DNA of 64,000 bases from Whitmania pigra (lineage: Eukaryota > Annelida > Clitellata > Hirudinida > Haemopidae). Made by a program: the position numbers and the translations under genes. The notes under the pieces were generated by a model. The model saw only the letters and a list, made by a program, of their open reading frames with translations. It did no database searches and had not been told where the DNA came from. The stretch is from NCBI GenBank assembly GCA_021613335.1, contig JAJTWR010000032.1, positions 1,191,001-1,255,000 on the forward strand, read 5' to 3'. Each line of letters begins with the position of its first letter. Within the stretch, counting starts at the first letter, position 1. Positions 13,152-63,900 of the stretch are shown piece after piece.

Positions 13152-13428
13152 TGAAATAACCTGGGGTCCGGGAACTAGTAAGTTTTAGAGTAAGTTTATT
13201 AAGCAAGTATTCAGTTAACTGAACTGAATAATCAAAGGTAAATGCGCCAAGGATATGAAGAGCTTTAGAACTGAAAGTTGTACTGAGATGTTGTTGGCCT
13301 CTTTGTGTGTCATAAAGTAGATACGACTACGTACAAAAAGATAATGAATATTACCCCAAATATAATTACATTTAAATTAATTATTCTCGGCAATATAATT
13401 TTAAAAATTTATTGCCAAGTTTACAACA
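13152..13428 (-). repeat. LTR (3' LTR of copy 1)
   Basis: This 277-bp repeat differs at several sites from its partner at 14856. For example it has an extra G in CCTGGGG and a changed block near 13370. It is therefore older or less homogenised than the other three LTRs. Confidence 0.88.
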
Positions 13429-19491: not shown

Positions 19492-20753
19492 TCAAATCAA
19501 GTCCAATTCGCAGAGGACGCACTGAAATCCAGAGCAACGGACATCATCTATTCCGATACTGTACACTAATATCACACAATAAATTATGCCATCTTCAGGA
19601 GAATTTGGTTCTCCAGAATTCCAAGGAGCTGTAGATTCCAATGGCATTGCGATACCTGGAAAAGGATTCCACAGGAATGGCTGTCGTTTACCGTTAATGT
19701 ACGAATTGATTCCGGCTGTCCAAAAAAGGTACCGGTCTTGATATACTGGCAGAACTGCCAAGATATTTTTGCGACTTATTTTTAACTTGTTTAATTATTT
19801 ATTATAAAAGATTCATGTGTTTTTTAAAATGCTCATTTATGTATTGCAACATAAAAAAGTAAAAAAAATAAATACAAAGTATAATGCTTTACTCTCTGCT
19901 TTGATGTAAAGAAAAAACAGTTGTGCATCATTATTGAGATTCAAAATAACAGGATGACAGCTAGGATTCAGTGCATTGCATGCTGTTCTGGCCATGGACC
20001 AATTCCAATTGCCAATAAGGGTTTCGACACACTTGTTGCCTTCAACTAAATATGTAAATCCTTTTGGACAATCTGTTGATAAATCAGCTAAAATACATTA
20101 ATATTAATCATTTTATTTAACTAATTCAAGGTACCCTATGTCAATTAATTTTTTTTAAATTTATTCAATTCTGATCTTATTTATTTCACCAAAAATACTT
20201 TGTCATGCCTAAGGGCTAAATGTGAAGTTGTGTCTAAAAACCAAAACCAAAAATCCAAAAAAGGTACAGGTCTGGATATATTAGTAAAACTCCAATTGAT
20301 TGGAGATATTTGCAATAAATATTTGAATACATTTCGTAAATTGAGGTTTTTAAGTAATGTTGGAATAAACAGAACTCATGCTTACATGATGTAATGAACA
20401 TGAACAACTACATACAATTGAGACATTTTTGAAATCAATTAAGATTTAAAACTAACCCGTTATTGATTGGTAACCTATGCATTCTTTACTGGGGAAGCTA
20501 ATGTAATCCTACCGAATGACATCTTGATAAACAGAACATTTTCTCTCCGCCAAGAGATACTTGAAACTCCTGCACTTGTCCCTAAGCATAATTTGACAGA
20601 ATGAGAAGCCTTCGATGATAGATCTAGTCGAAGTTTCATAAACAACTGAGTTTTTGAATATGTTCCCTTTTGAATTTGAAAGTACGTTTCGTATGATGAT
20701 TGATATATCACTGATACAATTAACATCATTCTTATAACGCTTATCAACCTCAT
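19492..20753 (-). pseudogene. PAN + C-type lectin gene, broken copy
   Basis: Three exons correspond to those of the gene at 36020-37271: exon 1 20457-20753, exon 2 19893-20072, exon 3 19492-19754. Splice sites are kept and exon 2 has the same length (180 nt). Exon 1 lacks 19 nt at about 20643, which removes the first PAN cysteine and shifts the frame. It also has TAG in place of a Tyr codon in D-V-I-R-Y-D (20509-20511). Exon 3 still encodes the lectin core with an E-P-N triplet. The gene is therefore dead unless an unseen start rescues it. Confidence 0.85.
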
Positions 20754-21339
20754 TATGTATTTTTTTAACAAATTGAACTTTGGTGTTTACTGAATGAAGC
20801 AGGAGAATAATTTTAAAGTATTTGTACTTCAACTCAACACTGTTAAAATACCATTACTGGAATGATTGGCTGAAATAAATAAAAATCAATTGCGCGAATA
20901 TGCAAGCTACGTATATTCACGGCACTTTTCTTTTAAAGGATGACTACTACATACAGCGTACACAAACTATCAATAACAAACTAAATAAGAAATTTCTTAC
21001 AAATATCCTATTTATGTAATGTGTAATATTTACCACAAAACCCTACTTTGAAATTCATGGAATGTCCGACTGATCAAAAGAATCGATTTACTAACAAAAA
21101 TATTCAAAGTCATTAGATAATATTCTACAGAGTAACCACAACAATTGAATAGAATGAAAATGCATATTTTATAATAACTACAAAATTACACTGCAATTGC
21201 CAAATAAAATTTCCATTGCCTTGCATAGATATAATTGAGATTTCTGAATTTTATAATTTTATAACTTGTTGGAATGTTCAGTTGAATGATGATTTGAGTT
21301 ACACAATAGGATTTGTTAGTGGTTTTTTGTTTGGATTTT

Positions 21340-29345: not shown

Positions 29346-29402
29346 CAGATTACTCGCGAGTAACGTGATGTCAATATCAAAAACCTATTGATTATCTTAA
29401 AC

Positions 29403-30946
29403 ATGAAATTATACGTAATGCATATATCTTCAGTAAATAACGTAAATTCTATGATCTACTCAATCATTCTTATGACAGTATGGTGGTCTTTATGTTATAG
29501 CACGTCAAGCGAAATTTCTGTTCGTCTTCAGAAAAAGTCCTATTCGAATATCAATCTGTGCAAAAGTGGTACTCCGATTTATGAAAGATCAGCCAGGTCA
29601 GCGATCGAATGTTTCAGATTTTGTCAAATTCAACTTGGAAACAATTGCAAGAGCTTCAGATATATACAAAGAGAATCAAAATATCAAGATCTTTATCAAG
29701 ATGTCATTCATTATGACTACAATGAAAATGCTAATGGGACGTGCAAAGGCTACCAGATTATGCCCGGCAAGATCTTATAATTTTTTTATTGAACCGAACA
29801 TAGATAGATATTAGAGTATGTTTATTTAGATATACATACAGAAATTTAGTTTAAAAAATTGTTGAAATTAGAAAAATTATCTCAAGATTTAGTTTGAAGG
29901 GATTGATAGGCTGCTGTTTAGACAAACTATTTTACAGTTTACATTAAGTTCATGTGATTTCGGTCATCTAAATGGAAGTTTCATTATTATTATTATTATA
30001 TATAAATTATAATATTCTACCTTTGGTAATTTAGAAGGTTGAAAATGTAAATCAATATGCAATGTTAAAAAGTTATAACATTTCCTGAATTACCAACTGA
30101 ATTACGAATTGTTTCTAGCGTTGAGAACAAAGCAGATTTAGGCCGATTCACTGCATACTGCATCTCATTCTGAGTCACTCGAGATCAAATTTAATAAGCA
30201 TTTAAAATAAAATTTAAAAAATAAAACACCTGCAAAGTATGATGGATTCCTCTGATGATTTATTTTTATATAACTCGTATTAACAAGCCGGTTAATTAAT
30301 TTCCAGTTTGTTTCACTTCCAAGTAAACAAATATATGTAAATTATTTATGCTATAAAGAAAAATCTTTTATTTTTACATTAATGTAATTAAATTATTGGC
30401 TCATCTGTTTAGTTGTTTCATTTCTTTAAAAACCAGATTGTCCTAGTGGGTTTAAATATTTACTCGAAGGAAACAAATGCGTGAAATTGATTGTTGGCAA
30501 TTGGGATTGGTACAAAGCCAAACAAATGTGCAACTCTTTGCATCCTCGTTCTCATCTTGTTATTGTGGATCTCAAGAATGATTCTCTGCTGTTCTCTCGT
30601 TTCTTAGAGAAAGAAAGCAAGTATTTCTCTCCAATGTCTTGGTTGATCGAATTTAAATTAATTGTATTCAATTTTTTGATCAGTTTTCCCAAACAGCCCT
30701 GGATATAATACATACTGGTGTGCTGGCCTCAGTCCTTACATAAACGGATCCCGAGGAAGGTTCCAATGGAGTCTCTTTCCAGGTGTTGTTCAACCGTTGA
30801 AAGCCACAACACCTTGGTATCCTGGAGAACCTAATTCTTATTCATTTTCATATGAAAATTGTATTCATTTGAGATACATGACCGATTTAAATGATTGTGA
30901 TTGCTGGATACAGATGTGTGTTCTCTGTGAAATTGATATGAATTGA
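29403..30946 (+). CDS. Secreted PAN-like + C-type lectin protein
   Basis: The three-exon model is 29403-29766, 30437-30641 and 30697-30946. Phases 1 then 2 agree and give 272 residues. Exon 1 encodes a hydrophobic signal segment (M-I-Y-S-I-I-L-M-T-V-W-W-S-L) and a PAN/Apple-like cysteine module (L-C-K-S-G-T-P, A-I-E-C-F-R-F-C, C-K-S-F-R-Y). Exons 2 and 3 encode a C-type lectin domain (L-L-E-G-N-K-C, G-N-W-D-W, W-Y-P-G-E-P-N, V-L-C-E-I). The E-P-N triplet usually marks mannose-type, calcium-dependent sugar binding. The second half-site is L-N-D rather than W-N-D, so binding is uncertain. The first intron uses a GC donor, and the second intron is only 55 bp. A role in recognition or immunity is inferred. 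Confidence 0.75.
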
Positions 30947-36019: not shown

Positions 36020-37271
36020 TCAAATCAAGTCCAATTCGCAGAGGGCGCAACCCAATCGAGAGCAATAATCATCATCTAATCCGATGTTGTACACGAAATC
36101 CATACAATAAATTTTGCCATCTTCAGGAAAACTTGGTTCTCCATAACTCCAAGGAGTTGTTGATTCCAATTGTTGCGTGACACCTGGAAAAGGATTCCAT
36201 AGGAATGTCCGCTTCCCGTTAATGTAGGAATTGATTCCGGATGACCAAAATACGTCCCATCCTAGATTTATTGGATTCGTGCAATATGGTAGAACTGCCA
36301 AAATATTTTTGCGACTTATTTTTAGCTTGTTTGATTATCTATTGTAAAAGATTCATGTGTTTGTTTAAAATGCTTATTTATGAATTGAAACATGAAAAAG
36401 TAAAAAAATACAAATTATAATGCTTTACTCTCTGCTTGAATGTAAAGAGAAAACAGTTGTTCATCATTCTTGAGATTCAAAATAACAGGATGACAGCTAG
36501 GATTCAGTGCATTGCATGCTGTTCTGGCCATGGACCAATTCCAATTTCCAATAAGTGTTTTGACACACTTGTTGCCTTCAACTAAATATGTAAATCCTTT
36601 TGGACAATCTGTTGATAAATCAGCCAAAATTAATATTAATCATTTTATTTAACTAACTCAAGGTACCCTGTGTCAATTAATTTTCTTTTATTTTGATTCT
36701 GATCTTATTTATTTCACTAAAAATACCTTGTCATGCCTAAGGGCTTAATGTGAAGTTGTGTCTAAAAACCAAAACGATTGGAGATATTTATCTTTTTTAT
36801 CTCAAACTTTGCAATAAATAATTAAATACATCTCGTAAATTGAGGCTTTTAAGTAATGTTGGAATAAACAGAACTCATGCTAACATGATGTAATGAACAT
36901 GAACAACTACATACAATTGAGACATTTTTGAAATCAATTAAGATTTAAAACTAACCCGTTATTGATTGGTAACCTATGCATTCTTTACTGGGGAAGCTAA
37001 TGTAATCATACCGAATGACATCTTGATAAACAGAACATTTTCTCTCCGCCAAGAGATACTTGAAACTCCTGCACTTGTCCCTAAGCATAATTTGACAGAA
37101 TGAGAAGCATTCGATGATAGATCTAGTCGAAGTTTCATAAACTGGAGTGCTGCTTTTACACAACTGAGTTTTTGAATATGTTCCCTTTTGAATTTGAAAG
37201 TACGTTTCGTATGATGATTGATATATCACTGATACAATTAGCATCATTCTTATAACGCTTATCAACCTCAT
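36020..37271 (-). CDS. Secreted PAN-like + C-type lectin protein
   Basis: The exons, in transcript order, are 36956-37271, 36429-36608 and 36020-36294. Phases agree and give 256 residues. The start M-R-L-I-S-V-I-R-M-M-L-I-V-S gives a signal peptide. The PAN-like module has L-C-K-S-S-T-P, I-I-E-C-F-S-F-C, K-C-R-S-F-K-Y and R-K-C-S-V-Y. The lectin domain runs from C-P-K-G-F-T-Y-L-V-E-G-N-K-C to P-W-S-Y-G-E-P-S and A-L-C-E-L-D-L-I. E-P-S replaces the sugar-binding E-P-N that is still present in the broken copy at 19492, so specificity may have changed. Both introns have GT donors (GTTAGT, GTAAAG) and AG acceptors. An upstream in-frame Met at 37349 is possible but would put a non-signal stretch first. 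Confidence 0.82.
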
Positions 37272-37959
37272 TATGTATTTTTTAACAAATTGAACTTTGG
37301 TGTTTACTGAATGAAGCAGGAGAATAATTTTAAAGTATTTGTACTTCAACTCAACACTGTTAAAATACCATTACTGGAATGATTGGCTGAAATAAATAAA
37401 AATCAATTGCGCGAATATGCAAGCTACGTACCACTCGCGGCACTTTTCTTTTAAAGGATGACTACTACATACAGCGTGCGCTATACCAAACTATCAATAA
37501 CAAACTAAATAAGAAATTTCTTACAAATATCCTATTTATGTAATATGTAATATTTACCACAAAACCCTACTTTGAAATTCATGGAATGTCCGACTGATCA
37601 AAAGAATCGATTTACTAATTAAAATAGTCAAAGTCATTATATAATATTCTACAGAGTAACCACAAAAAATGAATAGAATGAAAATACATATTTTATAATA
37701 TCACTAAATAACTAAAAAATTACACTGTAGTTGCCAAATAAAATTTCCATGCAAGGCAATTGAGATATTTGAATTTTATAATTTTATGGCTTGTTGGAAT
37801 GTGCCATTGAATGATGATTTGAGTTACACAATAGGTTTTGTTAGTTGTTTCTTGTTTAGATTTTAAACAACGGAGGTTTGTTTTATTTCGACAACTAATT
37901 GAAATACGTAGCGTCGACTCATCAAAACTTTTCAATGGCACTAGGCTTTGTATAAAAAG

Positions 37960-46925: not shown

Positions 46926-47250
46926 CAATATTTTACATTATACATGAAATCATGGTATGACGACGAGCCTTGTCTCAACTTAAATACGGAAAAGAATGAC
47001 ATCAACCCAGTCAGAATTATGTAAAACGCTTGACATTTTGTTTGGCAGAAGTTGATAACGCAAAAAATGATTTGAAACAAATGCAGAATAAATATACAGA
47101 GTGCAAGTTAAAGAGTAATAATATTTTAAATTTTGCGTAATTAATAAAATTATTCACGATCTTTCTGAGTCTCGAGTCAACGGCAAAGAGAAATTTGAGT
47201 AAATATGGTTTTAAGAAACAATATCGAAATAAACCGCCTCTTTAGAAAAA

Positions 47251-48318
47251 ATGAATTGCTTGAATAATGCCGACACAGCAACTGTAAAACCAATCGAAGA
47301 AGTTTTAAAATTTTCAGTTCATATTCTGAGTTCTGATCCAGACGTAAATGAACAAGTTGCAGTGAAGACTTCACGAAAAAGGACCAAAAAGCAGGACAGA
47401 GTGGCAAAGGAAGCAAAAATCGAGTGCGGCATCTGCCTCGACGAAATCAAAGAAAGTAATGCAGGTAAGCCATCTGGATGTAGTCACATGTTTTGCGTGA
47501 AATGCATCACAAAATGGGCACAATCTCACGACACATGTCCTTACGATCGGATAAAATTTCATTTTTTGACCATCATCAACAAGAAAACTGGTGAACTGGT
47601 GAGACAAGTAGAGAAAAAAGAGAAGAAACCAAAAACCACTAAAAGCAGAACAAGCCGAAGAACGGTGAGATCTGAGTCAAACCCAAACCTAAATGCTTTC
47701 ACAAATAGAGCTGAGAGAACACCCCTTAACCCTTTCCCTGACCGTAACCAAAACTCTAATCTTAATTCTAGCCATTGCAGGACATGCATGTCTTATGAAC
47801 ATCCGGATATGATGGTAACCTGTGACACATGCTTGTCTCGATTTCATATGGAATGTTTGAGTAATGCCAACGATGTCGAGGCTGACGAATGGTCATGCAG
47901 AACCTGCCGGTCGTTGGGGGGATCGGACTCGAAAGAGCACCTCGTAATGCGGAATGCAGCAGTAAGAAGAAGAGTACTCCAACACTACAGAACTCACAAT
48001 CAAATGCTCTTTGCAGCTGGCAACGGTAGCGTCTTGGCTAACATCAGCAGTAGACCCTCGAACACAAACGGATATTCAGCTACCACCAGTGCATCTTCAA
48101 CTGTCGTCAACAAAAGGTTCACCGTCAACACTAAACTTCCTCAACAACCGTTTCAGCGAGAACATCGCCAGCCTGAAGGATTTGAGGCAGCTCAACCTCG
48201 GGACATTCTCTTTGAAATAATGAGATCCCAAGAAATGTTATTTGGACAAGTCAAATATCAAAGCACACATCCATTGATTAAACATCATCTTCCGAGATAT
48301 TCAAAAAACAAAAATTAA
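47251..48318 (+). CDS. PHRF1-like RING + PHD protein
   Basis: The gene encodes an intronless 355-residue protein. A basic stretch (residues 40-56) may be a nuclear signal. The RING has C59, C62, C77, H79, C82, C85, C96 and D99 (C3HC3D). A PHD finger follows with C176, C179, C191, C194, H199, C202, C216 and C219. RING followed by PHD is the order in PHRF1, a nuclear E3 ligase that also reads histones, but PHRF1 is far longer (over 1,500 residues in vertebrates), so this is a compact relative. The C-terminus is polar and without known domains. It is the only family member here with the PHD and may be closest to the ancestor of the RING-only genes. A polyadenylation signal lies just after the stop (AATAAA near 48333). 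Confidence 0.88.
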   Translation: MNCLNNADTATVKPIEEVLKFSVHILSSDPDVNEQVAVKTSRKRTKKQDRVAKEAKIECGICLDEIKESNAGKPSGCSHMFCVKCITKWAQSHDTCPYDRIKFHFLTIINKKTGELVRQVEKKEKKPKTTKSRTSRRTVRSESNPNLNAFTNRAERTPLNPFPDRNQNSNLNSSHCRTCMSYEHPDMMVTCDTCLSRFHMECLSNANDVEADEWSCRTCRSLGGSDSKEHLVMRNAAVRRRVLQHYRTHNQMLFAAGNGSVLANISSRPSNTNGYSATTSASSTVVNKRFTVNTKLPQQPFQREHRQPEGFEAAQPRDILFEIMRSQEMLFGQVKYQSTHPLIKHHLPRYSKNKN

Positions 48319-48349
48319 TGTTTTAATTTCTTAATAAAAGGGAATCGTT

Positions 48350-49250
48350 TTGAAAATGTTGTCATGTTTTCATGATAACGTTTAGTATTATGTTTCGGCG
48401 ACATTAAAGCATTTCAGTATGTTCTGGAACTCTCTTCATCTCTTCAACCATCACCATCAAAGACACTCGAGGAAGAAAATAATCCAAAATACTGGAAGTA
48501 TCGAGGCCTTTGTGACCCTGCACTACAGAAATTTATTATTAATTAATTATTATACTACGATGCGTTTGTTCTTTATTGAACTTTCTTAAGACAAGTTTTG
48601 TTTGAATTGGTAAATTCTTGAAATGAATTTTTGGTTTTGAATTTGTTTAAAAATATTACGCACATTGCTTGACTTTTACCTCTTTTTTTGCTGACATTCT
48701 GATTTCAATAGTGAAATTTAAAAATGATGTTAATAACCTAATAAACTGTGACTGGATTCCACAAAAAAAAAATACTAATTACTGTAGGCTTTTCAAAATT
48801 ACAAAATTTACTAAACTTTTAAAACTAATCGGCCTCTTCTAGACATTTGGTTAGGTTTGGATATCATAGGTGTGTTCGGCTCGTGAAAGAAAGTTGTCCA
48901 TTACGCTCGTTGTTGAGATATTATCGATGATCATGCAAGAAAGTATGAACGTTCATTAAATTGATTAATTACATTCTCTCACGAAGCTGTTGTCTCAGAT
49001 TTAAAGGGAAGCCATTTTTAAATCTCAGCTTCTCAATCGAACCGTTGAAACTACGGGAGTTAGATATTTTTTAAATTGAATGCTTAGAAATTCAAAACCC
49101 ATTTTGAACTCATAGAAAAGTTTATATGGTTAATCTCGAGATGATATGTACCTCAAGTAATTCTAATGTTATTTACACTTTTTTATGGAATTGTTTTATT
49201 ATAAAACTATTACATATTATTACTATAATAAAAATTATACATTATACATT
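48350..49250. other. Intergenic, no gene seen
   Basis: This AT-rich spacer lies between the RING-PHD gene and the secreted-protein cluster. No ORF or repeat is recognised. Confidence 0.5.
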
Positions 49251-49252
49251 AG

Positions 49253-49260
49253 TATAAAAG
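49253..49260 (+). promoter_or_regulatory. TATA box of secreted gene A
   Basis: TATAAAAG stands 43 bp before the ATG at 49303. This fits a short 5' UTR. Confidence 0.5.
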
Positions 49261-49302
49261 TATTTTTTTCAACCAGGACATAAAACAAGTTGCTTTGAAA
49301 AT

Positions 49303-50946
49303 ATGAAAATCATTACTTGTTGGTTCGCCTTGATGTTACTTACCTCTAGCAGAGCAGGTTGTGACTATTAATTATAAATAAATAATAGAAAAATATAGAA
49401 CGTTTGAAAATATTTATTTGCATATTCACAATAATTATTATTTATTCTGATTTAAATATCCACAATAATAAAGCAAATCCACAAAATAAGCAATTTTAAA
49501 CAATTTGAATCCTTTGTATTTTGAAACACGATGCAGCAGAAATTTATAGCAAATTTGCAATAAATTTAGTTTATTATAATAATACCAAATTTAATTATCA
49601 CAACATTAAACTGCAATTACAATTTTCAAATTTTTATTTCTTTTTTTAACAGATCAATGTTCCCAAAAGTCTCATAACGTTGGTCTGTTCCTTAAATGCA
49701 TTGTTCCTTCGTTAAAGAGGTTTACACACGTTCATTCAGACACACAATTTTATAAAGAACCTCGCCCTGTCGATTGCAAGTAATATTTTGATTGATTCAT
49801 CTTTGAAATTCCATGAAAAACATTTTCTGAAGAAACAATGAGATTGTTAATTAGTCGAATTACTTATTTTGTGACATTTAAAAAAAAAAAAAAACAAATT
49901 GGTCAACAAATAATTTTTCAACTTATTTAGATCTTCCTATACAAATACAAAGGAATGTATTGAATCAAATGGAGGGTTTTGCAAAGACCAAAATGAAATT
50001 CCTGAACTAATGCTGGAGTTTCTCGAAAGGTTTTGCAAAGCAGCCAATGGTGATTTCAACGTTGTTTATTTGTTCTTTGCATGGCTGTATCCGTCAAACG
50101 TCGATATTTTCATTTTATAACTTTCTCACGCTGCCAGTATAAACAATTTTTCATTTTCCCAAAATTTTTCACAGTTTGTAGAAGGTCTGTACCAAAATAG
50201 CAAAGGGGCATGACAATAATAGCAAAATTCGGAAATTTAAAGAATTTAATTAACGTAATTGATATTACATCGCAGAATACGCCACCCTCGACGTCTTGAA
50301 AATCACGCAAGATCTTGTCGATGCCAGTCGAATGTTCGACACTTATGGTCTTGCTCGATCATGCTTTCACGAAGCAGGTCACAGTGAAACACTTCTTCTC
50401 AGATGCATTTTGAGTCCAATTATGTGCAAAGGAAGTTAAGTTGTTGGTGATGTTCGACTTAAGTACTTCAACTTGGATGAATTATTAGCTACATTCAAAT
50501 TGGATGAATTATTAAGTACATTAAGTACATTCAGAGGAATAAACTCTTAAGTGCATTGACTTTAATACCATTTCCAGGTTGATTGAGGATATGTATGTGT
50601 GCCTGGTGTCAAGTTGGCGGGGAAAAAGCTGGGCTGAAGAGTTTAAGGATGATCTTGATTTTTTCCTGGAGAACGTTCACATCAAAATCAGAGAGGGTTA
50701 GTATAAGGTTTGCAAGCTAATTTAGAAATCAAAATTTAAATCCACTTTTTAATAAAAATTTCATTTATAATTAATTCTAGAATATTGCAAAAGATTTAGA
50801 ATTTTTATAATAAATTTTATTTTTAATGTATTTGAAAAGTCTTTGTTAATTTCTGGTTTAATTTCTTTTTAGATCCATTTTGTACCAGCAGGCTGACACT
50901 CCCGAACATGATGTGCAAAGTGCTTGAAAATAATTACATTAATTAA
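49303..50946 (+). CDS. Secreted Cys-containing protein A, unknown family
   Basis: The six-exon model is 49303-49357, 49653-49779, 49931-50049, 50276-50402, 50578-50696 and 50873-50946. Reading phases agree throughout and give 188 residues. Exon 1 is a signal peptide (M-K-I-I-T-C-W-F-A-L-M-L-L). The mature part starts D-Q-C-S and has spaced cysteines, including G-G-F-C-K-D-Q-N, R-S-C-F-H-E-A and a final D-P-F-C-T-S-R-L. Genes B and C share exon lengths, phases and cysteine positions. One junction is odd: after 50402 the intron begins AT instead of GT, so this donor is either non-canonical or dead. If unspliced, the protein would stop at 50439. No domain is recognised, and its function is unknown. 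Confidence 0.7.
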
Positions 50947-51637
50947 TATAAATTATACTTTACGTATTGATGTATTTTACAAAATATTATCTATTTACAG
51001 CTTGCCACTTTTTGTTAATGATCATGGTGATAATATTATTCATTCGACAGGCAAATGCAAAGACACATAAAAGTAAAGACACAGATTTGTAGAAGCTACT
51101 TTGTAACTTGTGATTTACTCTCTCAAATAAATGCGAACCATTTTGAAACTAAAACTTGTTAATAGGTGTTAGGGTTACATTTAATCTAACAACATTTATT
51201 TAATTGAGTATATTGAATTATATCGAGAGGATTAAAAAGTACCTTGAGAATGTTTGATTAATCAGCATTTAGACAAAAACTTCAAAAATCTGATATTTTT
51301 AATTATGTTATATTTTCAAAAAGTTGATCTTCATAATTTTGGAACAACATATTTATCAATGACGTTTAGTATATATTATTAAAACGAAGCAATAATAGCA
51401 CAACTATTCTAAAGTTGTTTCCAAACATTAATTAACATCTCCTTAGTCGCTGCAAGCCATCACATCTGTTTACGATGTGTACAAAGTTCAAATAACATTA
51501 ATTAACAAACAGCTCATCTCAACCTTTAACTTTTAATTTATTAGGGTTTTGTATAAAATAACATACAACTGTGATTGGGGTGATTAAGTTCTTAATTTCT
51601 GAATGTTATTTTAGTTGTATTTTTGTTGTTGTTGGAA

Positions 51638-53379
51638 ATGAAAGTCATACTTGTAGTTGCGTTTGTGCTGCTTTCAAACTGTTTAGCCAAAGGTTAGTGA
51701 CATATTTGGATGTTCTGTTAATGAAAAATAATAGTAATTATTACGATTATGATGATGATGATGATGATGGTAACCAAAATATTTCTTGTAATTTTTCCAA
51801 AATTTACTTGTGAAATGGAGCCCAGGATTAAATTATTGGTTTGATTCATTTTGAATAAAGATATTATTTTCAGATGTCAAGAGTAATTTTTATACTGGTA
51901 AGATTCGAAAATTCGTCTGAATTGTGATTAAAGCTTAAAAATGCTGTTGATTTCTAATAAATAGTAAATAAACAGAAACAACATGTTTTAGTAAAATCGA
52001 GCTTGGGTTTTTTTGTGTGATACACCTCCTAACAGCTTGTATTCTGGGAATTAGGAATTAGCGTGACAATATTAAAACAAATCTTAATTGACTAATTGGA
52101 CTAATTGGATAACTGCACAGATATCTGCTCAAAGGAACGCGATCACAACCGTATCATCCTGAGGAAGTGCATAATACCAAAACTGTACGAGTTGGCTTAC
52201 CTGAACTATGGACTTGCTTATGGAAGCACAGACAAACTTCAGAAGTCTCTCTGCAGGCAGGATGCATGGCAAAACATTCCATATTTCCACGACAATTATT
52301 CACTTGTTCCGATTTGTTTTATTACGGTTATAATTTGTAAATACGTACGTTATCCAAGCAAAAATTTTTAATTTGTAGTTTTCTATTTATCGGGACCCAT
52401 TATTCTGAAAAATAATAATTATATCAATAAGCTATCCATCGAATTTTTAAATATTACCTACTTAATACATAATAAATTAACCTGGACAGCATTCAAGAAC
52501 TAATTTATCTCCATTTATGTTATGTCCATTTGATCAACCAGCGACATCGGCAAACAGTTTTCATGTGTCGACGACATGGGTGGTTTCTGCCAAGATCAGG
52601 ATCATTTTGGACCAAACATCTTGATGTATTTGAACCACTTGTGCAGAAATCCAGAAGGTAATCCATTGCATTATTTTAATTTAATTTATTTAAAAATTAA
52701 ATAAAACATTAAAAACGATGTTTCAAACTAAGACGAAAGCTTTCTCGACAGATTTCTCAATGCTTCACCAAGTCGTTCAGCAATTGATTTCTCTCAGTAG
52801 CGATCAAATAACCGCCATCAACAATGACATCAATCCGTGCCTGAAAGAAGCCAATCACGATGTATATTTGGACAGTTGCTTGTTTGGGTCACAACACTGC
52901 GAGTCCAGGTCGGTTCATCCGGATGTTGATGATTTTGTTTTCAGGTGCATTTACCTGAAAAATAACTCATTGAATCATAGCAAAAAGCACCAAAACCTAC
53001 ATTAAGTTTGAGTCAGTGTAATATTACCACATTTGTTTATCTGAATTCTTGTTATTTTTGAGTTTTACTAATATTTGTTATACCATAAACTCATTTCCAG
53101 TTACAAATTCATGGATTTTGAAGACAATTACATCTGCGTAATGTCTGCTTTGCAAGCCATCCAAGGATTAAACATGGATGAAGTCATTAAAACCACAAGT
53201 CTGGCTATCAAAATACTAAAATTGGAAATTGGAGAAGGTGATTTGAAAGAATTTGTTTTTAAATGTATTTTTATCTCTTCAGTAACATTCCATTAAAAGT
53301 AAGCTTTGACAAATCATTCTCCGCAGATCCATTTTGTAACAGCAAACTTAGCATTGCTAAAAGACTCTGCCGGACTTAG
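51638..53379 (+). CDS. Secreted Cys-containing protein B, unknown family
   Basis: The seven-exon model is 51638-51692, 51874-51897, 52121-52256, 52542-52657, 52740-52944, 53101-53237 and 53327-53379. All phases fit and give 241 residues. The signal peptide is M-K-V-I-L-V-V-A-F-V-L-L-S. A 24-nt mini-exon (D-V-K-S-N-F-Y-T) is absent from A and C. Shared blocks are D-I-C-S, G-G-F-C-Q-D-Q-D, L-C-R, N-Y-I-C-V-M-S-A-L and D-P-F-C-N-S-K-L. The exon ending at 52256 uses a GC donor. For exon 5 the acceptor is uncertain: 52740 keeps the frame, while the position homologous to gene C (52733) would shift it. A TATA-like TATAAAATA lies at about 51553. Function is unknown. Confidence 0.72.
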
Positions 53380-54356
53380 ATGCTTCCAGTCGAGGGAAAT
53401 GGTCTGTAAAGACATAAACATACAGTTCATTAACATATCAAACAATCTAAATAAATGATTACCTCAAACAACATAATTAATTGGTTATGAGCTGTTTCTA
53501 AATCTTTTAATAGAAGAACATGTATAAGTTCTTCAGTTATACTCCAATTTCGTGAATATTGATTTTATGACAAAGCTTCTGGTGTTGGAAATTTCTGCAA
53601 CGTTCAATGAGAATTATTTGAGAGTTTCATTCGATACAACGACATTTGTTTATTAAAATCAAATATTAAAAACTTTGTGTTAAAAACTTCAACGTGCTCA
53701 ATTGCATTTAAAAGCATTAAAAATTCTGCTTAAAAATGTTGAAAGTAACAAAAACATGGAGTACCTGTAATAATGATTCACAGTTCAATGAGTACTAACA
53801 GACCTTTCACGTCTGTTTTTTTTTTATTTCACATAATTTTGCATGTTTTGGCAATTTGTTTTTTGCTATCAACGTTTTAGTTTGTCGTTTGTCATGTTTT
53901 TTAAACATTACTTTGCATCATCAATTTCAAGTGGATCGATGCAAATGTCAAAAGTTCTCATTTATAAACTGAACGCTAATGATCTTTAGCTAGGTCCCTT
54001 CAGGTGAATATTACTCTATTAATTATAATATATATTATTTTAATTATGATAATTACATATATTCTATATGGTTGACTGAAAATATATTCTGATTAACGGT
54101 AATACTTTGAAAGAACGTTTATAATAGTTAATACTAAGGTTAAGTTTAACTTTTGGAGTGGGGTTAAGGTTATAGATACAATTTAAGAGTTTGGGTTGGA
54201 GCTACTTATAAAATCGAAGCATTAAAGTGGTCTCAATTGTTTTTGCTATTTTATTTATTATTTTATAAAAATACTTATTATTATAACCATAATTATTATA
54301 GCAGTGACACTGCTATATTGCTAGATTTTACATAACTACTTTTACCAAGTTGAACA
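53380..54356. other. Spacer, duplicated at 57211-58060
   Basis: This is non-coding DNA between genes B and C. Most of it recurs at 57211-58060 with small deletions, as part of a duplication of the B-C boundary. TATAAAAT at 54208 may serve gene C. Confidence 0.6.
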
Positions 54357-55124
54357 ATGATGATCGCTTTCATCTGGATGGCTTTTTCTGTTCTTTGTTC
54401 AGATGCTGCAGGTAATTAAATATTTTTAGTATTTGTTGCTGCGCAATGTAATTTTAAAAATAAAATTATTTCTCGAGTTTTAGAATTGCTTTTCTTGTAA
54501 TAAACCTTAAAATCATAATTTTATCTCTTCAATTTAGTTTATTAATATTTAATAGTAATAATATGTAATAAGATCATAAAAACATTGGTTTTAAAAACAT
54601 GAATTTGTTTTACAGATCCATGTTCCAATCCCTCCCACGACTTTCATGTTGTAGAAAAGTGCGTTCTGCCACTTGCCAAAAAATTCTTTCCTTTGTACTT
54701 CTCCCCCTATGACGTCAAACCTACGGAAATTTTGGTTTGCAAGTACGTAATTTTTAGTAATAATATAATTAATAAATTAAATGTGATTAGAAATATATAT
54801 TGGATATAATTGTCGCATGAGCTCAATTTGACTTCATTGAACAGATAAATACAATAATCTCATTACAGGCCTCAAACGGAGAAGGCTCTTCCATGCTTTA
54901 CAAAAAATCAGGGATTGTGTAAAAATGAAAACAGAAGGTTGCTGGATATTTTTGGAAGAACTTGTTTATTCGGAAAAAGCGAGTATATCCGAATAACTTT
55001 GAGTAAAAATTTCACTTTAGAAATGACAATAACAATTCCGAAAATTGGTTCATATTTATATAATATTTATTACAGGCCGATTGAATTTCGGGTACTGCAA
55101 TTTGTAGAGAATGAATATTTGTAA
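54357..55124 (+). CDS. Secreted Cys-containing protein C, 5' exons
   Basis: Exons are 54357-54411 (signal peptide M-M-I-A-F-I-W-M-A-F-S-V-L-C), 54616-54742 and 54869 onward. Exons 1 and 2 have exactly the lengths of gene A (55 and 127 nt) and the same phases. The mature part starts D-P-C-S and includes E-K-C-V-L-P and G-L-C-K-N-E-N. The donor expected after about 54974 is missing (GGAA in place of GT). As read, exon 3 runs on to a stop at 55122-55124 and would give a short secreted protein. The downstream exons at 55683 and 56114 are the natural partners if splicing still occurs. Confidence 0.6.
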
Positions 55125-55680
55125 GAAATTTAGTAAATAAAATCAATTTAAATTAAGGTATTTATTTTTATTTTACTTATTTACGTTTTATTTAAATAAA
55201 TATAGCATAAATTAAATAACATATTTAGCATTATTTAAAGTAAAATTTATTTATTTCTGTTTCAGCCGAAACTAAGTTTTATTTTTGGACCTGTTTCGGC
55301 TGATGTAAAAAAATCACTTTTGGTCGGTCTGTAATGCAATCATGTTATGCTTAATGTAAAAACGTATTTCGTGCCAGTTTCGATCCACTGATGGTTTTCT
55401 AAATTTGTACTTGTATTTAGCCGATTTTTTGAGTGCCTTATGTATCCGAATAGGATGTGAAGGCACTTCTTAATCGATCCAACATTTACGTAGCGGGCCC
55501 CTACCCGAGGGCGCTCCCTGGCGGTGCGAGCTGGGTTGCGAGCATGACGAGCAACGACAGTTGTTTTCAATGCCATTCGCAGTTTCTCTGAGCCAACCCG
55601 CACGCCTTACAAAGCGGTGACAAATTTTTTAATGTCATTTTAATGAAAGTTAAAGTAAGCAAGTTATTTTTTATAATCTC
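55125..55680. other. Insert-like stretch with GC-rich patch
   Basis: AT-rich DNA is followed by a hairpin (55262-55303) and a GC-richer patch at 55490-55570 unlike its surroundings. It lies between gene C exon 3 and its next homologous exon, so it is probably an insertion. No coding sequence is supported. Confidence 0.45.
55262..55303. repeat. 11-bp inverted repeat (hairpin)
   Basis: TCAGCCGAAAC (55262-55272) and its exact reverse complement GTTTCGGCTGA (55293-55303) flank a 20-nt spacer. Confidence 0.8.
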
Positions 55681-55682
55681 AG

Positions 55683-56214
55683 ACGAAAAGATTGTTGGGC
55701 TGGTGAATCTTATGAGAAAATGCTTCATTGACCTGAATAGTACTCCTTTATTTAATTGCTTCACAAGCCCAAATTGCCAGGAAAAGCTTAGTAATTTATT
55801 AAGTATTATGTAAATTATTATAAAATATTGTAAACATTAATTATTACAATAAGCAATAACATTATAATAAACATTTTAAAAAAATAAACATAAACAAAAT
55901 AATTTATTAATATTATTTTATTATTATTATTATTAAGTTTATATTATAGTGTTTTACATTATTACATAGATGTTTTATTATGCTATAAAGTAATGTCTAC
56001 TTCAATATAATATTATGTAATATTAATTTACAAGAAATATATATGTATACATATTATAGCCACATAAAAGATTGGTTAAATAATTAATATTTAAGCTTAT
56101 CAATCAATTTCAGAGATTTTAATGCTTTTACCAACTGTATTCTTACGAGATGGAGGGAATAGTGAAACCTCCGAAACTTTGTCTTAAAGAATCTGATGCA
56201 GATGCAAAAATTAG
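55683..56214 (+). pseudogene. Gene C downstream exons, decayed
   Basis: After CTCAG, the frame at 55683 reads D-E-K-I-V-G-L-V-N-L-M-R-K-C and S-P-N-C-Q-E-K, homologous to exon 5 of gene B. A second block at 56114-56214 reads D-F-N-A-F-T-N-C-I-L-T-R-W and meets TAG at about 56160. The donor after the first block is not GT at the expected place. These lesions suggest that gene C is losing its 3' half. Confidence 0.55.
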
Positions 56215-56883
56215 GTAAGTATCCACAAAGGTGACAAATCAACAACCAATTTGCAAACGAAAATCCATGAAAATGTTTTTTCTTCCAACAGAAAAAAGAA
56301 GTTTTGTTTGATTTTCTATCAAGATTGACACCATTTATTAAAACTATTCATTAATAGATATTAATGAAATAATAATATTAATAATAATAATAACAATGGA
56401 AGAAACTACGAATAATCGTTTGACTGGAAGTTTGTGACTACAATCCAAGTTGGATAATATTAACAAAATGTAAAATATTAATAGATTCATTTTTATTCCT
56501 AACATAAAAATTATCGTCTTTGATAATGATTTTAATTCTCTGAATATCTCAAAATTTCTTCACTAAATCGCCTTGCAAAATACGGAATAAGCAATGCAAG
56601 TTTGGTTTAAGGACATTTAAGAGGTTGAATTTTTTTACTTGTAAATTATATATTAAATATTATAGATTGTTTTCATAATTCCATCTCAAATATTAACGTA
56701 GAAAGATATCTTTCTTTGGAAGCTTTTGTACTTTTCTGTGAATTTCATGAATAAATGGCTTAAGAAATCATTTAAGCTTCTACATTTCATTTTACGAAAT
56801 AATGAGGCACAACTCATAACTCCTAAAATCTCCAATTATAACTTAGATTTTGATTATTTATGATTATTTAAGATAAAGATTAA
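56215..56883. other. Intron or intergenic DNA
   Basis: This is AT-rich sequence with a short (AAT)n tract near 56375. No gene is visible. Confidence 0.5.
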
Positions 56884-58090
56884 CGAGTTGGCTTACCTAA
56901 ACGTTGGGCTTTCTATTGGAGAAAATGAAATATTATTACTTTTGAGTTATACTAATATTTGTTTTACCATCAACCCAATTTCAGTAACAAATTCATTGCT
57001 AATTACATATGCCATATATCATATATCATTAAAGCCACAATTTGGCGACCAAATTAGAAATTGGAGAAGTTGATTTGAAATAAATTATACATTCTTATCT
57101 CTCAACTAACATTCCATTACTATTCAAATGTAAACTTTGACCAATCATTCTCCGCAGATCCATTTTGTAACAGCAAACTTAGCATTGCTAAAAGACTCTG
57201 CCGGACTTAGATGCTTCCAGTCGAGGGAAATGGTCTGTAAAGACATAAACATACAGTTCATTAACATATCAAACAATCTAAATAGATGATCACCTCAAAC
57301 AACATAATTAATTGGTTATGAGATGTTTCTAAATCTCTTAATAGAAGAACATGTATAAGTTCTTCAGTTACACTCCAATTTCTTGAAAGCGTACAACGAG
57401 AATTATTTGAGAATTTCACTCTATTCAACGACATTTGTTTTATTAAATTCAAAAATTAAAAACTTTGTGTTAAAAACTTCAACATGCTCATTTGCATTCA
57501 AAAAAAAAATTAAAAATTCTGCTTAAAAATGTTCAAAGTAACAAAACATGGAGTACATGTAATATTGATTCACAGTTCAATAAATACTAACATACATGCA
57601 ATCGCACAATATTGCATTGAAAGGCAAATTTTTATATCCTCGAGGTTTTATTCTGTCGTTTGTCATGTTTTTAAACATTATTTTGAACCATAAATTTGAA
57701 TTGGATCGATGCAATCCAAATTTCTCATTTATGAATTAAACTGCTCCTCGAAGTAAGGCCTTCTCGGGTAAATATTATCGTATCGTTGAAGATAAAATAA
57801 TTTGTTTAACCTAATGTGTTGCAATGTTAGAGGGTTAGTATAAAAGTTATTACCAAAGTTAAATTTAAGTTACTTATAATTTAAGTAAAATTAAGGTTAA
57901 CTTTTGGATAGCGGTTAGGTTAAAGATATCGATATATTTAATTATAGATATAATTTGATTGTTATTTATTATAACAGTGATACGGTTTATATTTCGCTAG
58001 ATTATACATAACTATATTCTCGCTCTAGTGATTACTGTCTATGTTATTTGTACAGTTGCTACAGACAATTAAACCTTTTTTAATATTTGT
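56884..58090 (+). pseudogene. Broken duplicate of B 3' end and C 5' end
   Basis: E-L-A-Y-L-N-V-G-L at 56888 echoes gene B exon 3 (E-L-A-Y-L-N-Y-G-L). Sequence from 56945 follows 53060 onward with deletions in exon 6. The terminal exon D-P-F-C-N-S-K-L...R-T at 57158-57210 looks identical to gene B's at 53327-53379. The spacer and a ruined exon 1 (near 58020-58070) follow. The perfect terminal exon could still serve gene C as its last exon. Confidence 0.7.
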
Positions 58091-58324
58091 GGCTACACTA
58101 TTATAAATTTATTTATATTAATTATTATTAATTTTATTAGTAATTAGGGCAGTTAATAATGGCTAAACTTACCTCAAACTTTATGGCTAAAGTTATAAAA
58201 TCAAATAACATTTATAAATATTTTCAAAGGAAAACCTAAAAAAAAAGATTTCGCATTACAAAATGATGAGGCACAACTCAAATGCTTAAAAAACTTTAAA
58301 TAAAGCCATGATTTTTAAAATTTC

Positions 58325-58560
58325 ATTTTCTATTTCCATGTTGATTCAGGATACCTAGCAAAACCGACAGATTTTGGACAGCTGTTAGCAACTTCTTCGC
58401 AAGTTCAAGAGCCAGCTGAAGACCTATCTTATCAGGATATCCATACATGGACCAAGGCGCTTTTGATGCTATGCTTAAGGCGCCATTGAAATGAACTATT
58501 ATTATTCGACTTCCTTTCAAATGTTTCAGGAATGGAATCCATAGGTTAAATACAACATAT
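58325..58560 (-). pseudogene. Possible short-chain dehydrogenase relic
   Basis: A minus-strand frame contains P-F-L-K-H-L-K-G-S-R-I-I-I-V, then S-K-A-P-W-S-M-Y-G, then L-Q-L-A-L-E-L-A-K-K, reminiscent of the central part of SDR enzymes near their Y-x-x-x-K active site. The K spacing is wrong and the frame shifts before a C-P-K-S-V-G-F-A-R-Y-P-E-S-T-W run. No flanking exons were found. The call is weak. Confidence 0.3.
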
Positions 58561-58701
58561 GGCAACTTCATAGATGTTTGGTGTCGGTTTGAAAAATAAA
58601 AGATTTTTACAAATGTGTAAACAAACACTCGTAAATTTATTGAAAACGAAAGCCAAAAACTATTGCAACTACGAAATTCTGTGGAATAAGCTAATTAAAT
58701 C

Positions 58702-59758
58702 CTATTCTTCTTCTGAAAGTACATCAGTTTTCCTTCTAACCACCTCCACAGCAACACAATCAAATCTTCCATCAACCAGGTAAGTTTCAGTTGCCTTCTT
58801 CATCAACTCCTGATTCATTTTCTCATTCTTCAATTCGTTGAACGCTGTTTTCGAGTCGGTTTTGAGTTGATTGGTGCCATTATCGGGAACTCCAGATTCG
58901 TGGAAAGTAGCACTGCAGGAGATGATGGACATGAAGCTCTTCTGGAACTTCTTGCCAATGAGGCAATAGATGATGAAGTTGATGGTGGAGTTGACTGTCA
59001 ACATGGCATTGCTCAGTTCGTTGATGTAGCGGAGAATCTGTTCAGGCGATTTCAAAGACATTCAATGGTTCAATCAATCAATCAAATTATCAGACATTCA
59101 ATCTGGATTAATCTAAAAGAATGTTTCTTTTAGTAGTATGAGTCGAAATGAATAAAATGAAATGTTTAATAAATAAAATCATTTTTAGGTAGAAATAATG
59201 CAATACTAAAAATAATGAATTAATGGTGACGTATTAAATAAATTGGCATTTCATGATTTTTAAACTTCTGAACGCTCGCCCTAAAAACTTACCTTACAAT
59301 AAGAACTTTAAATTAAAAATATTTTTTAGAATTTCTTAAATATTTGAACTATTTTAATTTAAAGAATTTCAAACAAAATAAATTATTTTGTAACAAATCT
59401 ATTTTAATAACCTGCTAGCGCTTGTTTTGGAGATGGCGACAATGATAACGTTATTTTTTTAATTTTATTTCTTAAAAATATTAAAATGCGTACCTAGAAA
59501 TCCTTCCTTAATCTCAGGAAATATTTTATTTTATTTTTATATTGAATTTTATTTCTTAAAAATATTAAAATGCATACATAGAAATCCTTCCTTAATCTCA
59601 TAAAAATATTCCAGAAAAAAGTTTTATTCCAGGAAAAGAGGAAAATATTCAACGCAGATTAATATAATACCTCTAAAGTTTATCTTTATTTTTAACTTAA
59701 TACCATCAAAGCCGTGATAAAGATAAATCGTAACTTCTTGTTGAAATAATAATAATAA

Positions 59759-59825
<67 letters not shown>

Positions 59826-59866
59826 ATAATAATAATAATATAATAATAATATATAATAATAATAAT

Positions 59867-59918
<52 letters not shown>

Positions 59919-59926
59919 ATAATAAT

Positions 59927-60002
<76 letters not shown>

Positions 60003-60872
60003 AATAATCATAATAATAATAATAATAATGGCACCCCGTCATAACAGCCCGGCGACAGAATAGCCCCGACAAAACAGCCCCGTCAAAACAGCCCTGTCAC
60101 CAGGGTCGGACTGGCTTAAAAAACCGGCCCGGGAAATTTTATTTAACTCCTAGTTTGATCAACTTAAACATAAGAAACACTAGAGTCTAAAATTTTTATT
60201 CACTATTAACTATTATAACAGCTTTTTATTGTTTCACAGGTCGATGCTAAAACATCAATGATTTTATTGTTATTGATTCTTGGAAAAGAGTCTTTCTCAC
60301 AAGACATCAGCATGAATGATCTTGATGAAAACGACCTCTCACAAGCAACTTGTGATGAGGATAATGTCAACACAAATTTGTAAGCCAGATACAAATTTGA
60401 ATAAGCAAGACTATGCAAATTAAACTTCTGGAGAACAATAATAACAACAAACAATACTCAAAACGGTCAAAGCATTCAAGCCACTAATTTCGAATTAAAT
60501 TTTGATTCAGTTTCACAACATTTTTTAAAAATACTTTGACATGGAGTTATCGTGGGGCTATAATGACGGGGCTATTTTTTCGCCGGGCTATTTTGTCGCC
60601 GGGTTGTTTTGTCCTGGGCTATTTTGTCGCCGGGCTTTTTTGACGGGGCTATTTTGACGGGGCCGTTTTGACGGGGCTATTTTGTCTTGGGCTATTTTGA
60701 CGCCGGGCTGTTTCGACGGGGCTGTTTTGTCGGGGCGGTTTTGTCGGGGCTGTTTTGTCTTGAGCTATTTTGACGCCGGGCTATTTTGACGGGGCTGTTT
60801 TGTCGGGGTTATTCTGTCGCCGGGCTGTTATGACGGGTCACCAATAATAATAATAATATAATAATAATAATA

Positions 60873-60940
<68 letters not shown>

Positions 60941-60959
60941 TAATAATATAATAATAATA

Positions 60960-60992
<33 letters not shown>

Positions 60993-63900
60993 TTCAAAAC
61001 TTTAAGAACATTTATTTTGAATTAAAACTTTTGTAAGTGAAATTATAAAATTATTTATTTAAGTCATTCCATTTTCTATCTTCCATTCTGATCATTAATG
61101 TTTTTCTTATATTTATATGTTTCAATGTCTCTCATGTTTAAGAGATGCTGTTTTCCTATTGTTTTTTTCAAAATAATTGCCACTTGTAATTATTGATGAG
61201 AGATGCAATTGTAATAATATAAAATATAAAAAATACATAAAACAATATGCTCCAGTTAATTAATCATACATTTTTTTTAACTCTTTCGCGATTAAATTAT
61301 TAGACCTTCAAGCAATTATTTTTCTTGAACATTCTTATTTCGTTGTATTTTAATTTCTTTGTTCTCTTTGAATGACTTTACATTTACTTTCAAATAGTAA
61401 ATAAAAGACATAATTAATATTTTACTTTTGCATTTATTCATTTATTTTATTTTATTATGCAGATTTTCAAGAACTAAGTGACGCACAAATACACAAATAA
61501 TACTAACCAGACCGCTGAAAATCACAAGAATATCAGTAAAATTATTTTCGATTTAAAAGTTTGAATTGAAAATGAGAGTTGTGAAGATGTATTCTTATTT
61601 ATTAACTTCAAACCAAACTAAACAAAAAGTAGAATTTCTTCCCACAAAATCGGGAAGGCAACAGGGAAGCGAATTCAAGAATTGGCTTCATTTTGACAAA
61701 TGTTCTCTCAGGGAAATCTTATTTATGAGTCTGGTTTGTAAAATCTGTTTTAAAAAACGTAAAAAAAAGTCTTCTTTAATTATTATTTTTAAAATATTCA
61801 TAATTTCTTTATTTACTCTTTTTAACGTTTATTTATCTAATTAAAATCTTTTCTTATGTTTTCAATACCAATCAATATAGAGGAATCATCATTTTCTGTA
61901 GAATGACATTTCGTCTTTTCTTGTCAAAATAACCGAATTTATTTCAATAATAAACACGAAACATCGTTAATAACAACCTTATTCATAATTCTTAAAGTTT
62001 TCTTTGAAGATAGTTTTTTGCATAAAAGAAAATAGAAAAGAAATTGTTGGACAGCATGAAACATTGCTCAGCTGGCATCAAAACGTGCTCAAGAGGAGCG
62101 TGTTTCCGTCCCTGTTGAGTGGTTTTCAGTCCTGGCAAACAGGTACAAAAAACGAAAGACGCTCTGAAGCACGTGGCGCCAAATAAATAATCTAATCTGA
62201 AAGCAACTCCATGCGAATCAAGAACCATTGCCGAGTGCATTTAGGAACGAAATGGAGAAAGGAGTAACAAGAAAACCTGAAGGTTGAGATGAATGTTGTG
62301 GTTGAACTCCATAATGGTGACTGCCACTCTGACTCCCAATGCCGGTATTTGACAGATGATGAAAACTGTAACAACAACGACTAGCATCACTGTGATGTTC
62401 TCCTTGTGTTGTACTCGTCTGCTCAGCATGTCCCTTCTTCTCTTGCGCACCTGGGAAATGATTAACGTAATTATTACTTCATATTTAATATTTAATAGCC
62501 GCGCCATATTTAACATTAAATCTTGTATTAAAGTTTTATTAAAATATTTTTGTATAATAAATAATAATGTGTGTTGATGAAGGAATTTGAAAATGAGAAA
62601 TATCCAGGAGGCATTGTAATGAGGAGACCAAACAATGAGAAAATATTTTTTCTTCAATTAAATAAGATGAAACTTTTACAATCTAAGTTTGACATTGAAA
62701 TAAAAATTTAAAAAAAATAAATAATTATAAAATGAAACAAAATAAAAAATTATTGTTTGACAATTTGGAAGAATTTTAATGAACATTCGAGATTTTCTCT
62801 AAAATGCATCTCAACATTTCTGAACAAATATTTCCGAGAATTTTTACTCAGCGGATTATAAGAATGAAAAAAATGAGAAAAAGAATTAGTCTCCATCGAG
62901 TGTATTTTCATTATTTTTTAATGATTAAATATTTAAAGTGAGTAGTTGGTAAAACTTGAAACAATAATTAAATTTATTTTCGAAGAATCTGGAAAATTGT
63001 TCTTGATTTGGGAAAAAGAAAAGAACATTGACCCGGCTTAAAAGAACCACAGCAACGACATTGCATCCTAAATCATGGGCCACTATTGAAATGCGTGGCG
63101 ATAGAGTGGGAAAGTAAAAGCGAAAATAATATTGAATTATAGTATAGGAATTATAGGATTATATTTATAACTTATAAAATCAGGCACAATTGGAAATTAT
63201 AAACAAATATTCTATTGAATATATAAAAATTATCTACTTTAAAAAGAAAACTATTTACTTTGCAGGTGTTGCTAGTACGTTGTATTTATTGAAGCATGTA
63301 TTGCAATATTGAGAAATTACTTCATTCTATAAGTATTCTGTGAATTTCTATTAAATATTACAAAAAATCTTTAAAATATCCTAGCAACAAACCAGCTCCA
63401 TTACCGAATCATAACTCAAAAAGTTTGCAATCAAAGAACTGCTAACTTTCAGCCACAATTAGGAACTGTTTTTTTTGCCCTATTCATTATGTTAGTCTGA
63501 GTACAATAGTAAAATAGTTAATGCTAATAATTATTTTAATGCTAATAATTATTTTAATGTTAATAATTATTTTAGTTAAACATTTCAATTAACTACTAAT
63601 ACTACTAAGCATTGCCCTCAAATCCTTTTCGGATATACATGGCATTAAAAAACGGCCAAAATACAAGTCAACAAATGAACTTTGTTCAAAATGTCCACAG
63701 ACCTTCCTGAGGTCTGATATGAGCCTCCAGTTGAAGTAGAGCAGCAGTAAAAGAGGACCAAATGACCTGAAGACGAAGTAGAAGATGGTCTTGTAAAAGA
63801 GAAAGTACAACTTGTTGAATCTGAAGTCTGTCCTCACTGTTCTTGTGATGTAACTGACAGGTTCCGCCCTTGTCATCGTATGGTTTGACTCCTCTGATTG

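What the first reader, a model, noticed from the sequence alone, without database searches (positions are those of the whole stretch)
49303..58090. Unrecognised multi-exon secreted protein family in a local cluster
Genes A (49303), B (51638) and C (54357) share a 55-nt signal-peptide exon, a mature start D-x-C-S, a middle G-G-F-C or G-L-C block, junction phases 1-2-1-2-1, and a short last exon starting D-P-F-C. Phases close perfectly in A (188 residues) and B (241). The proteins diverge strongly outside the cysteines, as expected for fast-evolving secreted effectors or recognition proteins. I recognise no domain. Absence from databases is not shown.
Basis: partly seen in the sequence, partly recalled or inferred. 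Interest (0 to 1): 0.8.

Follow-up and report, generated by a model that had tools for sequence, protein, structure and literature searches.

The report
Small leech secreted cysteine-rich gene cluster
In a leech genome, a few neighbouring genes appear to encode an undescribed family of short, secreted, cysteine-rich proteins; two copies look usable, the others are decayed, and their job is unknown.

Summary
The observation largely holds. The window is leech DNA (Hirudin and Antistasin family matches). Genes A and B each have a 55-nt signal exon, five more exons, phases 1-2-1-2-1, D-x-C-S, G-G-F-C and a D-P-F-C last exon, and are homologous along their length (23% identity, E 1.6e-18). Corrections: the all-GT-AG models most like the paralog have 213 residues (A) and 211 or 213 (B), not 188 and 241, and each lacks one of 12 aligned cysteines; keeping all 12 needs a TT donor in A or a GC donor in B. 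C has exons 1-3 only: it leaves the conserved frame and carries a dispersed repeat; the D-P-F-C copy at 57158 belongs to a decayed duplicate of B. No meaningful match was found in Pfam, PDB or 5.8 billion predicted proteins, and no convincing paralog elsewhere in the genome, but these searches are weak for spliced, divergent genes. Best reading: a small lineage-restricted secreted family under birth-and-death evolution, probably a disulphide-held, mainly helical binding protein, perhaps built from two six-cysteine halves. No expression evidence. Modest interest.

The parts
49303..49357 (+). A exon 1, signal-peptide exon, 55 nt
   Evidence: Open from ATG, GT donor, phase 1; hydropathy of residues 3-15 is 2.02; no signal-peptide predictor was available
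49653..49779 (+). A exon 2 (3 Cys)
   Evidence: AG-GT borders; A-B exon 2 above all 1000 shuffles
49931..50049 (+). A exon 3 (3 Cys, GGFC)
   Evidence: AG-GT borders; A-B exon 3 above all 1000 shuffles
50276..50435 (+). A exon 4; ends at 50423 with a GT donor (2 Cys kept) or at 50435 where the next bases are TT (3 Cys kept)
50578..50696 (+). A exon 5 (1 Cys)
   Evidence: AG-GT borders; 3 of 1000 shuffles reach the A-B score
50873..50946 (+). A exon 6 with stop (DPFC, 2 Cys)
   Evidence: A-B exon 6 above all 1000 shuffles; AATAAA at 51126 seen by eye
51638..51692 (+). B exon 1, signal-peptide exon, 55 nt
   Evidence: hydropathy 2.73
52121..52256 (+). B exon 2; ends at 52244 with a GT donor (2 Cys kept), or at 52256 or 52263 with a GC donor (3 Cys kept)
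52542..52657 (+). B exon 3 (3 Cys, GGFC); the best GC model starts it at 52558
52752..52908 (+). B exon 4 (3 Cys); an alternative GT end at 52902
53101..53237 (+). B exon 5 (1 Cys)
53327..53379 (+). B exon 6 with stop (DPFC, 2 Cys)
   Evidence: AATAAA at 53450 seen by eye
54357..54411 (+). C exon 1, signal-peptide exon, 55 nt
   Evidence: hydropathy 2.16
54616..54742 (+). C exon 2 (3 Cys)
   Evidence: AG-GT borders; A-C exon 2 above all 1000 shuffles
54869..54982 (+). C exon 3 (3 Cys, QGLC); its GT donor lies one base off the conserved phase
55392..55611 (.). Dispersed repeat inserted in C between exon 3 and the exon-4-like stretch (approximate ends)
   Evidence: 39 further copies scored among 1130 candidates in the genome
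55683..55813 (+). C exon-4-like stretch (3 Cys) running into a stop
   Evidence: translation; 3 of 1000 shuffles reach the A-C exon 4 score
56883..57741 (+). Decayed duplicate of B, with an exon 6 copy at 57158
   Evidence: 76% to 53042-53974 overall, 97% over the 262 nt 57126-57387
57874..58126 (+). Decayed remnants of a C copy (promoter side and exon 1 region)
   Evidence: 74-83% to pieces of 54119-54470

Best explanation
A small tandem family of secreted, disulphide-rich leech proteins. A and B are probably usable genes; C and a further B-C copy downstream are decayed, so the cluster evolves by duplication and loss. Shown: signal-like first exon, shared exon plan and phases, whole-length homology, aligned cysteines, decayed copies. 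Inferred: the chain is secreted; disulphides (six if all 12 cysteines are used) hold a mainly helical protein; it acts outside cells by binding another molecule rather than as an enzyme, since little beyond the cysteines is kept. Also inferred, weakly: it arose by doubling of a six-cysteine module (exons 2+3, then 4+5+6). The target is unknown.
For: A-B E 1.6e-18 over 219 columns, A-C E 4.6e-12. Same-numbered exons match in 5 of 6 cases; score beyond shuffles even with Cys masked; identity by codon position 0.42, 0.57, 0.36 over 182 aligned codons (the protein-guided alignment favours positions 1 and 2). Cys gaps nearly equal: A 12-25-9-7-17-33-13-6-10-34-10, B 13-27-8-7-17-33-12-6-14-36-10, on the 12-Cys borders. 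Exon 4 piece modelled mostly helical, pLDDT 73. Two halves: a profile of exon 2 ranks the three exon 4 peptides first among 10 other exon peptides; B exon 2 with A exon 4 scores 38, above all 58 other unlike exon pairs (maximum 35).
Against: No expression evidence of any kind. With GT-AG borders only, A and B each keep 11 cysteines, an odd number, and the 12-Cys borders need TT or GC donors; similarity scores do not clearly favour those (172 for TT A with GC-52256 B, against 174-176 for GT-AG B and 166 for GT-AG A; 178 for B with GC at 52263). Two halves: hhalign finds nothing; the B exon 4 score is reached by 194 of 1000 shuffles and the reverse profile misses C exon 2; five of nine exon 2-exon 4 pairs are at shuffle fractions above 0.1. 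The exon 2 piece model is poor (pLDDT 56). The binding role is not tested.
Confidence: 0.5

Rival explanations
1. A and B are salivary proteins that act on the host's blood or immune system during feeding.
For: Leech host; secreted-looking, cysteine-rich, clustered, divergent. In passages of PMC7191736 most salivary-cell ortholog clusters matched hypothetical proteins and part had no known identity.
Against: No salivary expression shown. No Pfam match to any family, so none to named leech anticoagulant domains. Many secreted leech proteins are not salivary.
Confidence: 0.2
2. They are distant members of a described secreted cysteine-rich family (for example the nematode DUF19/T20D4.11-like or insect haemolymph DUF1397 families), diverged beyond profile detection.
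For: Similar general look: secreted, about 200 residues, many cysteines, helical tendency. That DUF19 holds about 12 cysteines is recalled, from no call.
Against: No Pfam match at E 1 or, but for DUF4657 at 0.23, at E 10. HMMER's filters drop most weak matches. The genome-wide DUF19 search was silent, but so were its controls, so it shows nothing.
Confidence: 0.2
3. The whole cluster is decaying: none of the copies makes a working protein now.
For: C and the downstream copies are decayed. The borders that would keep all 12 cysteines lack GT in A and in B.
Against: Open GT-AG models of A and B exist with the conserved phases, and whole-length A-B similarity at only 23% identity means frames stayed open over long divergence.
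Confidence: 0.2
4. Chance: unrelated open stretches joined by eye.
For: Thousands of GT-AG models stay open.
Against: A-B E 1.6e-18 and A-C E 4.6e-12; 0 of 1000 shuffles reach the mature A-B score.
Confidence: 0.02

Closest known systems
DUF19 / T20D4.11-like domain (Pfam PF01579)
   Same: Secreted, cysteine-rich, about 12 cysteines (the family's features are recalled, from no call)
   Different: No profile match; its own conserved spacing was not compared
Granulin / leech progranulin
   Same: Repeats with 12 conserved cysteines in leech progranulin (PMC10671345, passages)
   Different: Leech progranulin has pairs of consecutive cysteines (PMC6476756, passages); here the smallest gap between mature cysteines is 6 residues, and no Pfam match
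Antistasin-type leech inhibitors (Pfam PF02822)
   Same: Secreted leech cysteine-rich proteins, some with internal repeats (PMC10671345, passages)
   Different: No Pfam match in A, B or C, while the same genome has 85 matching places elsewhere
Hirudin (Pfam PF00713)
   Same: Secreted leech protein with cysteines
   Different: No Pfam match; about 64 model positions against about 195 mature residues

Membership tests
DUF19 (PF01579) | Match to the Pfam profile | tested here: not met
   No match for A, B part, C part at E 1 nor for the three members at E 10
DUF19 (PF01579) | Same fold and disulphide pattern | not testable with these tools
   Spliced proteins were not handed to structure prediction; no family structure compared
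Granulin | Consecutive cysteine pairs | tested here: not met
   Smallest gap between mature cysteines is 6 residues in A and B
Antistasin (PF02822) | Match to the Pfam profile | tested here: not met
Hirudin (PF00713) | Match to the Pfam profile | tested here: not met
Secreted cysteine-rich protein (general kind) | N-terminal signal peptide | tested here: inconclusive
   Hydrophobic first exons in A, B, C (hydropathy 2.02, 2.73, 2.16); no predictor run
Secreted cysteine-rich protein (general kind) | Even, conserved set of cysteines | tested here: inconclusive
   12 of 12 align on TT/GC borders, 11 each on GT-AG borders
Secreted cysteine-rich protein (general kind) | Expression | not testable with these tools
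   No RNA or proteome data on hand

The most novel reading that the evidence does not exclude
A leech-specific secreted protein family with its own fold, made by doubling a two-exon six-cysteine module, turning over quickly by tandem duplication and decay, and recruited to saliva or body fluid as a binding protein.
Probability: 0.15. Interest if true: 0.5.

Novelty: new member of a known kind. Interest (0 to 1): 0.3.

Why it matters
Leech secreted proteins are usually found by homology to known families. A family without a known domain would be missed that way. If A or B is made in salivary cells it is a candidate for a new activity; if not, it is one more lineage-restricted secreted family, a common kind. 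The cluster also shows duplication and decay caught at several stages within 9 kb.

Tried and rejected
Other family members. Protein searches of the genome with B (7 places), C (5) and the first 100 residues of A (3) found only this cluster, except one place on contig C39 (E 2.66 with C), rejected because its aligned stretch lacks the conserved cysteines and no neighbouring exon matches. The first look of that tool needs close similarity, so divergent paralogs could be missed. A degenerate pattern for the GGFC block gave 10 places (control 0): A, B and 8 others. Of the 8 I fetched and compared 5; none has convincing neighbouring exons. 3 were not fetched; two of these bear the same 21 letters as a fetched one. 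A pattern for the DPFC exon gave 23 places against 13 for the reversed control: three exact ones in this cluster, the other 20 with 2 or 3 mismatches, not followed. 100 kb on each side held nothing better than E 1.9.

Species. Assembly figures in passages of three leech papers did not equal 178,173,256 bases in 381 contigs. COX1 gave four places that read without stops in the bacterial code, so probably bacterial; no help.

Rfam: nothing at 47000-60000 up to E 0.1. No tRNA in the window. Paper searches listed nothing that I recognised as this family; they match words, in an open-licence library, and I saw listings and passages only.

Full report
Host. The window is G000:C20:1191001-1255000 of a genome of 178,173,256 bases in 381 contigs. 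Pfam Antistasin matches 85 places and Hirudin one, over its cut-off. I viewed part of the hirudin locus. The 14 controls were silent for both, but the eight controls named are all prokaryotes, so they say little. That these families together point to a leech is general knowledge.

Gene models. A: 49303-49357, 49653-49779, 49931-50049, 50276-50423 (or 50435), 50578-50696, 50873-50946. B: 51638-51692, 52121-52244 (or 52256, 52263), 52542-52657 (or from 52558), 52752-52908 (or 52902), 53101-53237, 53327-53379. Phases are 1-2-1-2-1 in both.

Borders. Open phases alone prove little: 6,480 (A) and 38,400 (B) six-exon GT-AG models stay open within the limits scanned. I ranked models by global similarity to the paralog. 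A with a TT donor against B with GC at 52256 scores 172. The best GT-AG A scores 166 (213 aa, 11 Cys) against that B. The best GT-AG B models score 176 (211 aa) and 174 (213 aa), 11 Cys each, against TT A. With GC allowed at B intron 2 (67,174 models) the best scores 178 (212 aa, 12 Cys, exon 2 to 52263). The differences are a few points, so similarity does not settle the borders; RNA must. An even number of cysteines favours the 12-Cys borders as an argument, not a test.

Homology. A-B 23.3% over 219 columns, E 1.6e-18; A-C 30.2% over 96 columns, E 4.6e-12; B-C E 0.013. By exon, the A-B score is above all 1000 shuffles for exons 2, 3 and 6; 3 of 1000 reach exon 5, 45 exon 4 and 151 exon 1. 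So exon 1 is shared in length and kind rather than in letters. A exon 4 scores higher with B exon 2 (38) than with B exon 4 (29).

Two halves. Exons 2+3 hold six cysteines and exons 4+5+6 six more (12-Cys borders), and each half has a phase-2 intron after its third cysteine. A profile of exon 2 ranks A4 (4.9), C4 (3.9) and B4 (0.4) first among 10 other exon peptides, of which two got no score. Free shuffles reaching the score: 0, 14 and 194 of 1000; with cysteines fixed: 3, 19 and 217. The reverse profile scores B2 5.5 (8 of 1000 reach it) and A2 1.3 (124 of 1000, tied with C3), and misses C2. Of nine exon 2-exon 4 pairs, one has a shuffle fraction of 0.001, two are below 0.02, one is 0.0285 and five are above 0.1; of six exon 3 against exon 5+6 pairs one is at 0.008 and five are above 0.07. 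hhalign finds nothing. I rate the doubling as suggestive.

C and downstream copies. C exons 1-3 have GT-AG borders up to exon 3. The GT after exon 3 is one base off the conserved phase. A repeat at about 55392-55611 has 39 further copies among the 40 places scored of 1130 candidates. The exon-4-like stretch at 55683 ends in a stop. Pieces of B and C recur at 56883-58126: 76% over 53042-53974, 82% over a 38-nt piece of exon 2, and 74-83% over three pieces near the start of C. One 262-nt stretch around exon 6 is 97% alike, far above its surroundings; gene conversion or a later partial copy would explain it. I found no exon 5 or 6 for C other than these B-copy remnants.

Known families. Pfam: none at E 1 for A, the first 102 residues of B and the first 98 of C; at E 10, for the three members of A1, one stray match to DUF4657 at 0.23. 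PDB: one match at E 0.037 to a UDP-L-rhamnose synthase, read as chance. 5.8 billion proteins: nothing at E 10. The same database holds a 67% relative, on a 2.2-Mb ENA contig, of the neighbouring single-exon RING-PHD gene, so a related animal is in it; but I infer that spliced genes are not properly predicted there.

Structure. Exon pieces only: exon 4, helices 2-32, 37-45 and 47-50, pLDDT 73, pTM 0.42; exon 2, one helix 9-28, pLDDT 56. This supports a helical tendency and no more; no fold search was run.

Verdict. A real but small, apparently undescribed secreted family in a leech; ordinary in kind; expression and target unproven.

Noticed in passing
window 736-6258 (+): Four tandem copies of a RING-finger ORF at a spacing of 1670 bases (736, 2406, 4076, 5746); the first three have 294 residues and are nearly identical, the fourth is cut short; RING by Pfam for the first copy.
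   Followed up: partly
window 13421-14734 and 15696-17009 (-): Two nearly identical 437-residue ORFs 2275 bases apart; weak SAP-domain match below the curated cut-off for the first.
   Followed up: partly
window 36951-37370 (-), 20475-20853 (-), 29364-29780 (+): PAN-domain ORF at 36951-37370, over the Pfam cut-off; the other two look alike by eye, and 29364-29780 had no Pfam match at 0.01.
   Followed up: partly
window 57126-57387 against 53295-53556: 97% identity over 262 nt around B exon 6 inside a duplicate that is otherwise about 76% alike.
   Followed up: partly
window 55392-55611: Short GC-richer dispersed repeat with 39 other scored copies (1130 candidates) and no Rfam match; perhaps a SINE-like element.
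   Followed up: partly
window 47233-48318 (+): Single-exon RING plus PHD protein with a 67% relative in the protein database.
   Followed up: partly
window 58702-62657 (-): Probable rhodopsin-type GPCR exons; the 62241-62657 ORF matches 7tm_1 below the curated cut-off, the 58702-59061 ORF has no match.
   Followed up: no
window 8401-8862 (-): hAT transposase C-terminal piece, over the Pfam cut-off.
   Followed up: no
G000 contigs C115, C49, C360, C47: Four COX1 matches that read without stops in the bacterial code; probably bacterial contigs or symbionts in the assembly.
   Followed up: no
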